A stretch of 50,311 nucleotides of DNA from Candidatus Bathyarchaeota archaeon. GTDB lineage: Archaea > Thermoproteota > Bathyarchaeia > 40CM-2-53-6. This document shows, piece by piece, positions 45,580 to 49,442 of this stretch. The position numbers and the translations under genes are program-made. Numbering within the stretch: the stretch's first letter is position 1; the number at the start of each line of letters is the position of its first letter. The stretch is taken from NCBI GenBank assembly GCA_005888735.1, contig VBBN01000003.1:1-50311 (forward strand), in the 5' to 3' direction. The notes below the pieces were generated by a model that was not told the DNA's origin, did no database searches, and worked only from the letters and a program-made list of their open reading frames with translations.

Positions 45580-46023
45580 ATGTCGAGGAGTAGAGATGAG
45601 GGACATCAGCTTCTCGACCATGTAACCGATGCTCTTATCGAAGCCTGGGGGCCAACCCTCGAACGCGCTCTGGCCCAAGCCGGGCTTGGACTCTTCGAGA
45701 CAATTGCAGACCTCAACAACGTCATCCCCTCCGAGGCTCGGAAGATAAGAGTCTCAGGACACGACGAGCTAGAACTTGTCTACAACTGGCTAGAGGAACT
45801 TCTTCTCTCTTTTGAGATAAAACGAATGATATTTTCCGAGTTCGACATCGAGAAGATTACGAACATAGACTCATCGGAGCTACTGAAAGCTACGGCTCAC
45901 GGAGAGCACTACGACCCTGACCGACACCACGGACGCGTTGAAGTGAAAGGAGTCACATATCATGAGATGTCAGTCGTGCGTCGTGCTGGAAGAGTCACCG
46001 TAAGGTTCCTCCTAGACCTCTAA
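45580..46023 (+). CDS. Archease
   Basis: A 147-aa archease, the small protein that activates the RtcB RNA ligase by helping guanylylation and turnover. It has LLDHVTDALIEAWGPTLERA, ALAQAGLGLFETIADLNNVI, LELVYNWLEELLLSFEIKRM and the C-terminal VEVKGVTYHEMSVVRR (family hallmark K.vTYHem.v). Length is normal. It lies directly upstream of rtcB, the common archaeal order. The divergent gene is the three-intron tRNA-Ser. Confidence 0.95.
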   Translation: MSRSRDEGHQLLDHVTDALIEAWGPTLERALAQAGLGLFETIADLNNVIPSEARKIRVSGHDELELVYNWLEELLLSFEIKRMIFSEFDIEKITNIDSSELLKATAHGEHYDPDRHHGRVEVKGVTYHEMSVVRRAGRVTVRFLLDL

Positions 46024-46073
46024 CACGCAACGATTCGGCCTAGACCGACAGTCTTGTCGCACCACTCAATGAG

Positions 46074-46081
46074 GCTTATAG
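46074..46081 (+). promoter_or_regulatory. TATA box of rtcB
   Basis: GCTTATAG, about 35 bases before the rtcB ATG at 46113. It gives rtcB a promoter of its own with a leader of about ten bases, besides any read-through from archease. Confidence 0.45.
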
Positions 46082-46112
46082 GCTACAGCTTCAAGGCCCA
46101 GCCTGACGAGGG

Positions 46113-47600
46113 ATGAGCGAGACAGTGCAGGGCTTCGGCAGAACCACCAGCAGCCAAATTCCAGTTCACAAAGTTGCTCCCAACATATGGGAAGTCTCCA
46201 GCGACCACCAGCCCGGCATGAAAGTACCAGCACGTATCTACGCGGACGACGACCTCCTCGCAAAGATGAGAACAGACAGGACAATCCAGCAGTGCGTCAA
46301 CGTGGCTCACCTCCAGGGAATATGCAACTACTCAATCACCATGCCCGACGGTCACGAAGGCTACGGTTTTCCAATAGGAGGAGTCGCGGCGACCGACTAT
46401 GACGAGGGACTTGTTAGTCCAGGCGGAGTAGGCTACGATATCAACTGCGGCGTCCGGCTCATAAGAACCAACCTGACCGAAGAAGAGGTTCGGCCCCAAC
46501 TCACAAAACTCGTCGAGACAATATTCAACTTCATACCATCAGGCCTGGGGAGCAAAGGGCAGATCCGGCTGAGCACCAGCGAGCTCGACAAGGCTGTGAC
46601 TGACGGCCTTGACTGGGCCCTCGACCATGGCTATGCTTGGCCAGAGGATCATAGGACCATCGAGGAAGAGGGTTGCATGGAGGCTGCCGACCCAGCGAAA
46701 ATCTCCAACAATGCCAAATCCCGTGGCGCCCCACAACTCGGAAGTCTGGGAAGCGGAAACCATTTCATCGAGATAGAAAGAGCCGACAAGATCTTCGACA
46801 AACGAGTCGCTGACAGATTCGGAATAACAAAGGAAGGACAAATCCTAGTGTTGATTCACACAGGCAGCAGGGGCTTTGGCCACCAAGTTTGCAGCGATTA
46901 CCTGCGGGTGATGGAGAGAGCCATCGGCAAATACAATATCCAGCTTCCAGACCGCGAATTAGCAGCCTGTCCCAGCAAGAGCCCGGAGGCAGAGGACTAC
47001 ATTCCCGCGATGTCGGCTGCTTGCAACTTCGCTTGGGTGAACCGGCAGATGATAACCCACTGGACACGCCAGGCGTTCGAGAAAGTATTCCAGAAGCCAG
47101 CTGACTCTCTGGACATGCGGATCGTCTACGACGTCGCACACAATGTTGCGAAGGTTGAGACGCACACTGTGAAAGGTCAGATGCGAAAAGTGACAGTACA
47201 CCGGAAGGGGGCGACGCGTTCTTTTCCCCCAGGGAACCCGGATATTCCTGCTGAGTACCGCGACGTAGGTCAGCCGGTTTTGATTCCGGGTAGTATGGGG
47301 ACTAGTAGTTGGGTTCTTGTTGGGACACCTAGGGCGATGGAGTTGAGTTTTGGGACGACTGCTCATGGGGCTGGTCGGTTTATGAGCAGGTCTGCCGCGC
47401 GGCGGAAGTGGTGGGGTGCTGACCTGAAGAAGTCGTTGGAGAGTCGGGGAATTGTTGTTCGGGCTGCGAGTCTGGAGGTTGTGGCGGAAGAGGCGCCGGA
47501 CGCATACAAGGATGTTGACCGGGTGGTGGAAGTCAGCCACCAGTTGGGAATTGGGACAAAAGTTGTTCGGATGACACCTATTGGTGTGGCCAAGGGCTAG
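46113..47600 (+). CDS. rtcB: tRNA-splicing ligase RtcB
   Basis: A 495-aa GTP- and Mn-dependent RNA ligase joining 2',3'-cyclic phosphate and 5'-OH ends after intron excision. It has TMPDGHEGYGFPIGGVAATD, VSPGGVGYDINCGVRLIRTN (metal-binding Cys), LGSGNHFIEIERAD (metal His), HTGSRGFGHQVCSDYL, and TTAHGAGRFMSRSAARRKWW, whose His accepts GMP. Full length and continuous, with no intein. Together with archease and a BHB endonuclease (not in this window) it would process the intron-bearing RNAs encoded on either side. Confidence 0.97.
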   Translation: MSETVQGFGRTTSSQIPVHKVAPNIWEVSSDHQPGMKVPARIYADDDLLAKMRTDRTIQQCVNVAHLQGICNYSITMPDGHEGYGFPIGGVAATDYDEGLVSPGGVGYDINCGVRLIRTNLTEEEVRPQLTKLVETIFNFIPSGLGSKGQIRLSTSELDKAVTDGLDWALDHGYAWPEDHRTIEEEGCMEAADPAKISNNAKSRGAPQLGSLGSGNHFIEIERADKIFDKRVADRFGITKEGQILVLIHTGSRGFGHQVCSDYLRVMERAIGKYNIQLPDRELAACPSKSPEAEDYIPAMSAACNFAWVNRQMITHWTRQAFEKVFQKPADSLDMRIVYDVAHNVAKVETHTVKGQMRKVTVHRKGATRSFPPGNPDIPAEYRDVGQPVLIPGSMGTSSWVLVGTPRAMELSFGTTAHGAGRFMSRSAARRKWWGADLKKSLESRGIVVRAASLEVVAEEAPDAYKDVDRVVEVSHQLGIGTKVVRMTPIGVAKG

Positions 47601-47666
47601 TTACTTTTGCAAATCTTCGTTTGATGTGAGCATTATTACGTAAGGGACGGGTGTGCTCTTCGGCGT

Positions 47667-47793
47667 GGGCGAGCGTGAGGCGCCTGCCTCGAGAGAGCCG
47701 GGCTGAGGGAAGACTCTCGTCTTCACTGTGAGGCTTTGGTGTTAGTGTTGCAGGCGACAGCCTCTGTCAAAGGGGCTTACGCGAAACTCGCCC
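47667..47793 (+). ncRNA. Candidate structured RNA between rtcB and tyrS
   Basis: A 127-base GC-rich segment with a long closing helix: GGGCGAG (47667-47673) with CTCGCCC (47787-47793), extended by CGTGAG (47674-47679) with CTTACG (47776-47781). Inside, CGCCTGC (47681-47687) pairs with GCAGGCG (47750-47756) and CGAGAG (47690-47695) with CTCTCG (47714-47719). GAGGCT (47730-47735) could pair with AGCCTC (47759-47764), interleaved as a pseudoknot. No tRNA T-arm is present. I cannot assign it to a known RNA family. The strand is assumed from the neighbours. Confidence 0.4.
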
Positions 47794-47861
47794 TAAAGTC
47801 GTGGGCTAGAGGCTTTAAGCCGAGAACTGTTTTGGGTTGATGTCGTGGATAGGAGGCCTCG

Positions 47862-48968
47862 ATGAGCTTAGAGAAGCGTCTCGACCTTGCTTGTCGTGGG
47901 ACTATTGAGGTTGTCCAGCGTTCCGAGCTGGAGAAGCTCTTGGCTGAAAAGAAAAAGCCTCGGGCGTACTGGGGCTTTGAGTGTTCCGGAAAGCGGCGCT
48001 AGCCGCCTGGACTGATGCACATCGGCCAAGGACTTGTCTGCGGCCTCAAAATCCGAGACATGGTCGAGGCTGGTTTCGAGTTCATCATATTCCTCGCCGA
48101 CTGGCATTCCATGGTGAACAACAAGTTCGGCGGAGACATGAGCAAGATTCGACAGATCGGCGAATACTTCAAGCACTGTTTTACTGCGCTGGGGCTACCG
48201 GAGGGGAAGGTCCACTATGTCTGGGCGTCGGAGCTTGCCGGCAGGGCTGAATACTGGGAGAGAGTGTTGCGTGTTGGGAAGGCGTCGAGTGCGCAACGTG
48301 TGATGAGGGCTCTTCCGATCATGGGCCGGGAGATGACGGGCAAAGATGCGGAGGCCGCTAGCCTGTTCTACCCTTGCATGCAGGCTGCCGATATTTTCGA
48401 GATGCGGCTTGATGTTGCGTGCGCGGGAGTTGACCAGCGGAAGGCGCACATTCTCGCCCGGGAGACAGGGGAGAAGCTTGGCTGGGGTAAGCCGGTTTGT
48501 CTCCATACTCCCTTGTTGATGGGCTTAGCGGGCTTGGGGGCTGGTGTTGTCGGGAGTTTTGACGAAGACCCGAAGGTGAGCAGCGTGATCGCGGCGAAAA
48601 TGTCGAAGAGCAAGCCTGAGAGTAGCGTTTTGATTCATGATAGTCCGCAGGTAATTGGAGAGAAGCTGCGCGGGGCGTTCTGCCCGCCGGGTGTTGTCGA
48701 GGGTAATCCGTTGATGGAGTACTTCGGGACTCTAGTCTTTCCCCGCTATGCAGAGTTTGTTTTGAAGCGTGAGACGAAGTACGGCGGGGATATCGTGGTT
48801 CAGGGTTTTGAGGAGCTGGAGCGGTTGTACGTGGCTGGGAAGGTTCATCCTCAGGATTTGAAGGTGAACATGGCCGGGTTCTTGTCTGACGAGCTGGCTC
48901 CGGTCCGGGAGTATTTTGCTGCTAGGCCCAAGGTTTTGGAAGAGGTTCGAGGAATCGATGCTGGTTAG
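47862..48968 (+). CDS. tyrS: Tyrosyl-tRNA synthetase interrupted by a 21-nt BHB-type intron
   Basis: ATG 47862 has a Shine-Dalgarno-like GGAGG just upstream. The first exon encodes MSLEKRLDLACRGTIEVVQR and onward to PRAYWGFECSG. An in-frame TAG (48000-48002) then interrupts. The same frame resumes with MHIGQGLVCGLKIRDM (HIGH motif), FYPCMQAADIFEMRLDVACA, GVDQRKAHILARE and AAKMSKSKPESSVLIHDSP (KMSKS), all archaeal TyrRS motifs. Removing 47992-48012 gives GFECSGMMHIGQGL, a continuous class I active site, and a 361-aa protein of normal length. Without splicing, only a 46-residue peptide or a product lacking the tyrosine-binding N-terminus could be made. Confidence 0.9.
47992..48012 (+). other. 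BHB-type intron in tyrS pre-mRNA
   Basis: 21 nt. Exon CCGG (47986-47989) pairs with intron CTGG (48007-48010), flanked by 3-nt bulges AAA (47990-47992) and ACT (48011-48013). The inner helix GCGGC/GCCGC is capped by GCTA, and the outer helix is GTGTT/GATGC with wobble pairs. Cutting after the second base of each bulge removes exactly 21 nt and turns A + TG into an ATG codon, in frame. The in-frame TAG lies in the loop and inner helix. Confidence 0.85.
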
Positions 48969-48983
48969 TGTTAGGGTTTGGTT

Positions 48984-49442
48984 GTGAAGGAGAGGCGTAG
49001 GTGTCGGCTGGCCGTTCGTCAGCCCCGGGCATCGTATTACGCCTGGAAGAAGGAGGAGGTGGAGAAGGTGTTGGATTTGTTGCGGAGAAGTTCGAGTGAG
49101 GGTGTTCCGGTCATTGTGGAGGGGCGGAAGGATGAGGCCGCTCTCCGGAAGCTGGCGGTTTCGGGGAGGGTTTTGTGTTTGAAGGCGAGACGGGGCTCGA
49201 GGCTGGACTTTGTCGAGCAGCTGGACGGATTCGACAGAGTGATTGTCCTGACGGACTTCGACCGCGAAGGACGTGAGCTCCGAGACTGGCTCTATCATGA
49301 ACTGTCAAGGCTCGGTGTCAAGACGGATGATACGTTGTGGCGTAGGGTCAAGGCGTTGTCGCGGTCGGATGTTCGGAGTGTGGAGGAACTGCCGAGCTTC
49401 ATCAGAGCTTTGGAAGCCCGAGCAATGGGCAGGAGGCTTTGA
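48984..49442 (+). CDS. Toprim-domain protein (archaeal UPF0292-like)
   Basis: About 152 aa. The Toprim fold is shown by GVPVIVEGRKDEAALRKLAV (catalytic Glu) and FDRVIVLTDFDREGRELRDW (DxD metal-binding pair), followed by a helical region. Small archaeal Toprim proteins resemble the nucleotidyl-transfer core of primases and topoisomerases; their exact role is unclear. GTG 48984 or TTG 48978 can serve as start, 9-15 nt after the tyrS stop, so the two genes are probably co-transcribed. Confidence 0.8.
   Translation: MKERRRCRLAVRQPRASYYAWKKEEVEKVLDLLRRSSSEGVPVIVEGRKDEAALRKLAVSGRVLCLKARRGSRLDFVEQLDGFDRVIVLTDFDREGRELRDWLYHELSRLGVKTDDTLWRRVKALSRSDVRSVEELPSFIRALEARAMGRRL

What the first reader, a model, noticed from the sequence alone, without database searches (positions are those of the whole stretch)
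47862..48968. Tyrosyl-tRNA synthetase gene appears to carry a 21-nt BHB intron with an in-frame stop
Seen: the TyrRS frame is continuous from 47862 to 48968 except for one TAG at 48000-48002, immediately before the HIGH motif. The 21 nt at 47992-48012 form a near-ideal bulge-helix-bulge: CCGG/CTGG core, AAA and ACT bulges, GCGGC/GCCGC inner helix. Exact excision yields GFECSGMMHIGQGL. Known: archaeal pre-mRNA splicing by the tRNA endonuclease and RtcB is established mainly for cbf5. Inferred: tyrS here is a spliced protein-coding gene, so synthesis of an essential synthetase depends on the tRNA-splicing machinery. Unspliced message would give a 46-aa peptide, which offers a possible feedback control.
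Basis: partly seen in the sequence, partly recalled or inferred. Interest (0 to 1): 0.93.

Follow-up and report, generated by a model that had tools for sequence, protein, structure and literature searches.

The report
Spliced tyrosyl-tRNA synthetase gene in archaea
A gene every cell needs, the one that loads tyrosine onto its transfer RNA, is interrupted at the same spot in many Bathyarchaeia by a tiny insert whose RNA shape marks it for removal by the transfer-RNA splicing enzymes, which would make it a second kind of spliced protein gene in archaea.

Summary
Window 47862-48968 is a tyrS gene, the only TyrRS found in its genome. It is broken by TAG 48000-48002 within 21 nt (47992-48012) that fold as a 5/4/5 bulge-helix-bulge. 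Relatives show this is no sequencing accident. Of 136 genomes of its class (taken as Bathyarchaeia) whose site I read, 33, in seven families, carry an insert at the same nucleotide, 21-53 nt long and of changing sequence. Only 7 of 33 lengths are multiples of three. Cutting at the standard tRNA-endonuclease position gives Leu or Met before MH in 33 of 33, as in 80 of 94 intronless sites. Helices covary, including an exon base with an intron base. The genome has two EndA-family proteins, one catalytic-like, plus RtcB and archease. I conclude that this is a conserved EndA/RtcB pre-mRNA intron. Splicing itself was not observed. In the papers I saw, cbf5 is the only protein gene with a reported coding-sequence BHB intron in archaea. 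One old gain with losses, or repeated gains, remains open.

The parts
47862..47991 (+). tyrS exon 1 (43 codons plus the first base of codon 44)
   Evidence: homologous N-terminal frame in relatives
47992..48012 (+). 21-nt BHB intron of tyrS, phase 1, with an in-frame TAG at 48000-48002
48013..48968 (+). tyrS exon 2, from the last two bases of codon 44 (MHIG... KMSKS ... stop)
   Evidence: Pfam tRNA-synt_1b PF00579
47981..47989 (+). exonic 5' strand of the BHB: outer helix GTGTT and core CCGG
48007..48018 (+). 3' strand of the BHB: core CTGG (intron), bulge ACT with the cut after AC, outer helix GATGC (exon)
47993..48006 (+). inner helix GCGGC/GCCGC with GCTA loop, wholly inside the intron
46113..47600 (+). 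rtcB, tRNA-splicing ligase, gene directly upstream (enzyme expected to join the exons)
   Evidence: Pfam PF01139, E 2.8e-173
45580..46023 (+). archease, helper of RtcB (role recalled)
   Evidence: Pfam PF01951, E 1e-38

Best explanation
A conserved archaeal pre-mRNA intron in tyrS. The tyrS transcript folds at the HIGH-motif codons into a bulge-helix-bulge. The tRNA-splicing endonuclease EndA (probably heteromeric: one catalytic and one structural subunit) cuts after the second base of each bulge. RtcB, helped by archease, joins exon ends 47991 and 48013, giving a 361-aa TyrRS with GFECSGMMHIG. Shown: the insert, its fold, its homologous position, its covariation, the intact exon frames, and the enzymes' genes. 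Inferred: cutting and joining in the cell, and the make-up of the EndA complex. The intron is most likely a near-neutral passenger kept because EndA is present anyway; a regulatory role is possible but unproven.
For: (1) 33 of 136 genomes read have an insert at the same nucleotide, in 7 families; lengths 21-53 nt; length mod 3 = 0, 1, 2 in 7, 5, 21 genomes. (2) Excision at the EndA position leaves L (17) or M (16) in 33 of 33; cuts shifted one to three bases upstream give I or V in 13 of 33, and one base downstream gives K, T, Q or stop in 29 of 33. Intronless sites have L 63, M 17, F 8, I 4, P 2 of 94. (3) Covariation over 24 distinct loop-trimmed rows: 44 cells with both sides changed against a shuffled mean of 15.7, and covariation score 0.412 against 0.223, 0 of 500 shuffles as high; core and inner helices each 95.8% paired; exon base 7 with intron base 25 is U-A in 15 and C-G in 9 of 24. 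RNAalifold without a given structure finds the inner helix and three of four core pairs. (4) Exon codons at the site are TCY-GGA in 33 of 33 intron genes against 3 of 94 intronless sites. (5) A covariance model separates intron genes (70-90 bits) from intronless ones (span 54 nt, at most 52.2 bits). (6) EndA: one own protein aligns along nearly its whole length with PDB chain 3p1z_B, E 5e-42; a second PF01974 protein lacks the matching DHAPFIV-like stretch. (7) dN 0.018-0.052 against dS 0.15-0.69 in five close intron-bearing pairs; only one TyrRS found in the own genome.
Against: No transcript or protein data. The outer helix is weak (77.5% of cells paired), and 6 of 33 genomes have an unpaired inner end of the core (G-A). 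Two measures do not exceed shuffles: pairs with a change on both sides (5 against 4.6; 333 of 500 as high) and further pair types (13 against 13.4). The motif alone is not rare by chance and its folding energy is not exceptional. PF01974 is also in the intronless relatives searched (41 of 41 genomes), so EndA does not tell the two sets apart. Counts are not corrected for kinship. All this rests on draft genomes; the own one is 93% complete, so an intronless second copy could be missing.
Confidence: 0.93

Rival explanations
1. Programmed ribosome bypassing: the ribosome jumps from the GGA codon before the insert to a matching codon after it, as in phage T4 gene 60 (recalled).
For: A GGA codon stands on both sides of the insert in the window and in 17 of 33 genomes in all; a hairpin lies between.
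Against: In 16 of 33 genomes the codon at the would-be landing site is AGA (15) or AGT (1), not GGA (row of shift -4). The bulges, the exon-intron core pairing and the L/M rule at the EndA cut are not asked for by bypassing. TCY-GGA exon codons fit core pairing.
Confidence: 0.02
2. Stop-codon read-through or pyrrolysine at TAG, adding seven residues to TyrRS.
For: The window's insert is a multiple of three with a TAG in frame.
Against: 26 of 33 same-site inserts are not multiples of three, so read-through would leave exon 2 out of frame. The insert would sit in a stretch, GFExSGxMH, that shows no insertion in the 94 close intronless sites.
Confidence: 0.01
3. Pseudogene or assembly error in this genome.
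For: Draft genome; stop in frame; a truncated tyrS remnant does exist in one relative (G065 C4).
Against: Same-site inserts in 32 further genomes; no other TyrRS found in the genome; strong amino-acid conservation outside the insert.
Confidence: 0.02
4. The splice is real but serves regulation: TyrRS output is tied to tRNA-splicing capacity.
For: The intron is kept in members of seven families; archease and rtcB lie next to tyrS here.
Against: rtcB was not seen upstream of tyrS in any relative locus held (flanks up to about 1.5 kb); many relatives lack the intron altogether; early stops are not conserved.
Confidence: 0.15

Closest known systems
cbf5 pre-mRNA intron of Desulfurococcales and Sulfolobales (Yokobori 2009, PMC2738675: sections 8, 9 and the reference list read; Watanabe 2002 seen only in reference lists)
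   Same: Very short intron at a fixed codon in a housekeeping gene, BHB at both borders, cut between second and third bulge base, patchy gain and loss; hetero-oligomeric EndA proposed there and likely here.
   Different: Different gene and class; core and bulges are regular in 27 of 33 here, while that paper calls most cbf5 motifs it shows unconventional; 21-53 nt against 16-44 nt; lies in the HIGH motif of a synthetase. Splicing of cbf5 has cDNA support; this one has none yet.
Archaeal tRNA introns
   Same: Same motif and presumably same enzymes; 11 of 18 tRNA matches in the own genome are 100 nt or longer, as expected with introns.
   Different: Here the substrate is a protein-coding message outside any tRNA fold.
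HVO_1309 5' UTR BHB sites of Haloferax volcanii (PMC7714728, passages read)
   Same: An mRNA cut by EndA at BHB sites.
   Different: In the untranslated leader, so no reading frame depends on it.
Putative 12-bp introns of rudivirus SIRV1 genes (as told in PMC2738675, section 8)
   Same: Short insert in protein genes, proposed as introns.
   Different: Splicing not shown, insert keeps frame, virus genes.

Membership tests
EndA-type (BHB) intron in an archaeal protein-coding gene | Exon-intron borders fold into a bulge-helix-bulge with a 4-bp core and 3-nt bulges | tested here: met
   with 3-nt bulges set, 27 of 33 cores have 4 pairs (GU allowed), 6 of 33 have 3; outer helix often weak
EndA-type (BHB) intron in an archaeal protein-coding gene | Cut between second and third bulge base restores the protein frame | tested here: met
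   33 of 33 give SG(L/M) then MH
EndA-type (BHB) intron in an archaeal protein-coding gene | Intron absent at the same site in related genes | tested here: met
   94 close intronless sites counted
EndA-type (BHB) intron in an archaeal protein-coding gene | Host genome encodes a catalytic and a structural EndA subunit | tested here: met
   two PF01974 proteins in own genome, one like PDB 3p1z_B; complex and substrate range not assayed
EndA-type (BHB) intron in an archaeal protein-coding gene | RNA ligase RtcB present | tested here: met
   46113-47600
EndA-type (BHB) intron in an archaeal protein-coding gene | Spliced cDNA observed or RNA cut by EndA in vitro | not testable with these tools
   no transcript data on hand
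cbf5 intron family | Lies in cbf5 | tested here: not met
   host gene is tyrS; the own TruB/cbf5-type match lies in an unbroken 314-aa frame
Programmed translational bypassing | Matching take-off and landing codons | tested here: not met
   17 of 33 match, 16 of 33 do not

The most novel reading that the evidence does not exclude
Many Bathyarchaeia depend on, or have repeatedly regained, a spliced essential synthetase at one fixed nucleotide. The HIGH-motif codons act as a proto-splice site, and TyrRS supply is tied to tRNA-splicing capacity, giving a regulated mRNA-splicing step in archaea.
Probability: 0.15. Interest if true: 0.93.

Novelty: new member of a known kind. Interest (0 to 1): 0.83.

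Why it matters
If splicing is confirmed, archaea have a second conserved family of spliced protein-coding genes, in a largely uncultivated class and in an essential aminoacyl-tRNA synthetase. It turns the question of how archaeal mRNA introns arise, persist and are lost into a comparison that can be run now: 33 genomes with the intron, 104 read sites without it, and exon bases constrained by pairing. A gene caller would be likely to truncate or misframe such genes (inference).

Tried and rejected
Bypassing, read-through and pseudogene readings were tested and rejected. A conserved rtcB-tyrS pair was looked for and not found: only the window's own loci L001 and L002 showed rtcB, within flanks of up to about 1.5 kb and less in some loci. 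Rfam scan of the window: nothing over gathering score. In one search the L066 stretch was cut inside the motif, so its fold says nothing about the BHB; the L047 stretch folds with core, 5' bulge and inner helix but a 5-nt 3' bulge. A BHB-only model (R2) searched in the own genome gave two hits at E about 8 and missed the known tyrS site, so it says nothing about further introns. In 41 genomes R2 found 22 places at E up to 0.5: 18 tyrS introns, of the 23 that these genomes have, and four other places (G003 C78, G018 C88, G013 C90, G008 C69), none a clear interrupted gene. The phylum search (398 genomes drawn) found no intron-like match outside the class, only two of intronless length, but the model works on DNA likeness and its filters lose weak matches, so absence elsewhere is not shown. 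The tree of 90 rows holds 29 of the 33 intron genes; partial rows L067 and L102 were left out, and three pairs of rows are identical. It needs 8 changes of the label, of which starred branches force 3, and 28 of 84 inner branches are weak. The AU test rejects intron rows as one clade, p 6.7e-36, which fits one old gain with losses as well as repeated gains. The tRNA finder was run without intron mode, so tRNA introns were judged only by match length.

Full report
What is there. The window is contig C5 of a 2.39-Mb, 72-contig genome, 93% complete. Among the 80 best named records most are titled Candidatus Bathyarchaeota, as are 11 of the 14 closest (L033-L046); a smaller part are Hecatellales, Heimdallarchaeota and other archaea. 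I therefore take the window's class as Bathyarchaeia (inference); record names with depths in cm suggest soil for the nearest ones (inference). The gene at 47862-48968 is tyrosyl-tRNA synthetase (Pfam PF00579). Its frame is open except for TAG 48000-48002. A search of the genome found no other TyrRS: the only weak second hit (E 0.017) has a different HIGH region of its own.

The structure. The 21 nt at 47992-48012 and their flanks fold, as minimum-energy structure of 47980-48019, into outer helix, core CCGG/CTGG, two 3-nt bulges and inner helix GCGGC/GCCGC; 16 of 200 shuffles fold as well, and in a longer stretch the outer pairing shifts. A scan for outer, core and inner helices together finds only this place on both strands of the window, against 0 or 1 per shuffled strand; without the outer helix the shape is common by chance. 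The motif alone would therefore not be convincing.

The relatives decide the matter. I read the same site in 136 genomes of the class (137 sites; one genome has two): 30 loci, 7, and 100 stretches. Of 256 class genomes searched 228 have a match, so 92 were not read. 33 genomes have an insert at the identical nucleotide: 16 in the window's family and 17 in six more families. Lengths are 21, 22, 23, 24, 25, 27, 29, 30, 32, 34, 35, 37 and 53 nt, and only 7 of 33 keep frame. The other 104 sites, ten of them from a more distant TyrRS type, show no insert (sites that the script flagged were judged by eye). Among the 80 named loci, 23 show the insert. An automatic label also flagged loci whose motif is GFESSG, GFELSG or alike; read by eye these have no insert. 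L067 and L102 are partial matches: L067 reads without insert and L102 cannot be judged.

The cut site. If EndA cuts as described for cbf5 (between second and third bulge base, PMC2738675 section 8), the joined codon codes for Met or Leu in 33 of 33. Moving both cuts by one to three bases upstream yields Ile or Val in 13 of 33, and one base downstream yields Lys, Thr, Gln or a stop in 29 of 33. Intronless sites have Leu 63, Met 17, Phe 8, Ile 4, Pro 2 of 94.

Covariation. Over 24 distinct loop-trimmed rows, core and inner helices are each 95.8% paired, the outer 77.5%. 44 cells have both sides changed (shuffled mean 15.7, 0 of 500 as high), and sliding the partner strand destroys the signal. 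Two other measures, pairs with a change on both sides (5 against 4.6) and further pair types (13 against 13.4), do not exceed shuffles; and shuffles do not allow for kinship. The strongest single sign is pair 7-25 between an exon base (third base of the Ser codon) and an intron base: U-A in 15 rows, C-G in 9, no exception. RNAalifold without a given structure finds the inner helix and three of four core pairs. The exon seems to pay for the pairing: TCC or TCT followed by GGA in 33 of 33 intron genes, 3 of 94 intronless sites (not corrected for kinship). Six of the window family's 16 rows have ACGG with a G-A mismatch at the inner core pair, and outer helices are often broken, so some introns have a relaxed motif.

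The machinery. PF01974 proteins occur in 41 of 41 genomes searched, with or without the intron; the own genome has two matches, and 35 of 41 have two or more. One own copy aligns over 5-188 of 189 residues with PDB chain 3p1z_B (E 5e-42; Aeropyrum pernix as recalled), including the GPGIDHAPFIV stretch that holds the catalytic His (recalled); the other lacks this stretch and looks structural. PMC6379350 (passages read) says that only (alpha-beta)2 and epsilon2 enzymes remove relaxed motifs efficiently. The A. pernix loop with a Lys important for this (recalled as Lys44) has a Lys at the aligned place here. RtcB and archease lie just upstream of tyrS, but no relative locus held has rtcB there, while a downstream Toprim-domain gene is found in many. 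Eleven of 18 tRNA matches in the own genome are 100 nt or longer, as expected with introns.

Gain and loss. On a quick tree of 90 TyrRS proteins the intron label needs 8 changes, at least 3 on well-supported branches. One clade of the 29 intron rows is rejected. Same nucleotide, an invariant first inner pair (G-C in 24 of 24 rows) and similar border bases favour common descent with several losses, as proposed for cbf5; repeated gain at one site is not excluded. The genes stay under purifying selection: dN 0.018-0.052 against dS 0.15-0.69 in five close intron-bearing pairs; four wider pairs, including all three with the window, are at or near saturation in dS. The own cbf5-type gene has no interruption in its 314-aa frame.

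What is known. Nine literature searches aimed at archaeal or bathyarchaeal BHB introns and tyrS introns listed no title or abstract opening reporting an intron in an archaeal tyrS. The lists (30 of 368; 15 of 70) were cut, the library holds open-licence papers only, and beyond listings I saw only passages or sections of eight papers. PMC7714728 (2020, passages) states that only one additional BHB intron had been reported in archaea, in cbf5 mRNA, besides its own 5' UTR case. PMC2738675 (sections 8, 9, 14) describes cbf5 introns of 16-44 nt, their patchy loss, and unproven 12-bp virus inserts. I therefore file this as a new member of a known kind, in a new gene and class.

What is open. No RNA evidence exists here. 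The function of the intron, its age and the reason for its retention are unknown. The early-stop feedback idea is not supported, because the stop's place is not kept.

Noticed in passing
window 45580-47600: Archease and rtcB, the RNA-ligase pair, stand directly upstream of the intron-bearing tyrS; this order was not seen in the relative loci held (flanks up to about 1.5 kb).
   Followed up: partly
L294 (G003 C78:3958-3994): A BHB-like match as strong as the tyrS introns (35.8 bits) lies between an ornithine-cyclodeaminase-like frame and a flavin-monooxygenase-like frame (names from reading, no search) in a genome whose own tyrS has no intron; host gene unclear.
   Followed up: partly
L271 (G065 C4:17219-17291): A truncated second tyrS piece with a 19-nt insert at the same site, beside the full intron-bearing gene on C19; looks like a decayed copy.
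   Followed up: partly
G000 tRNA matches (L273-L290): Eleven of 18 tRNA matches are 100-146 nt long, suggesting many tRNA introns in this genome; ARAGORN without intron mode names a tRNA in five of the 18 loci, one of them apparently the same gene twice.
   Followed up: partly
window 48978-49442: Small Toprim-domain gene just after tyrS, found downstream of tyrS in many relatives.
   Followed up: partly
window 47601-47861: A 261-nt gap between rtcB and tyrS with no Rfam match over gathering score; content not explained.
   Followed up: no
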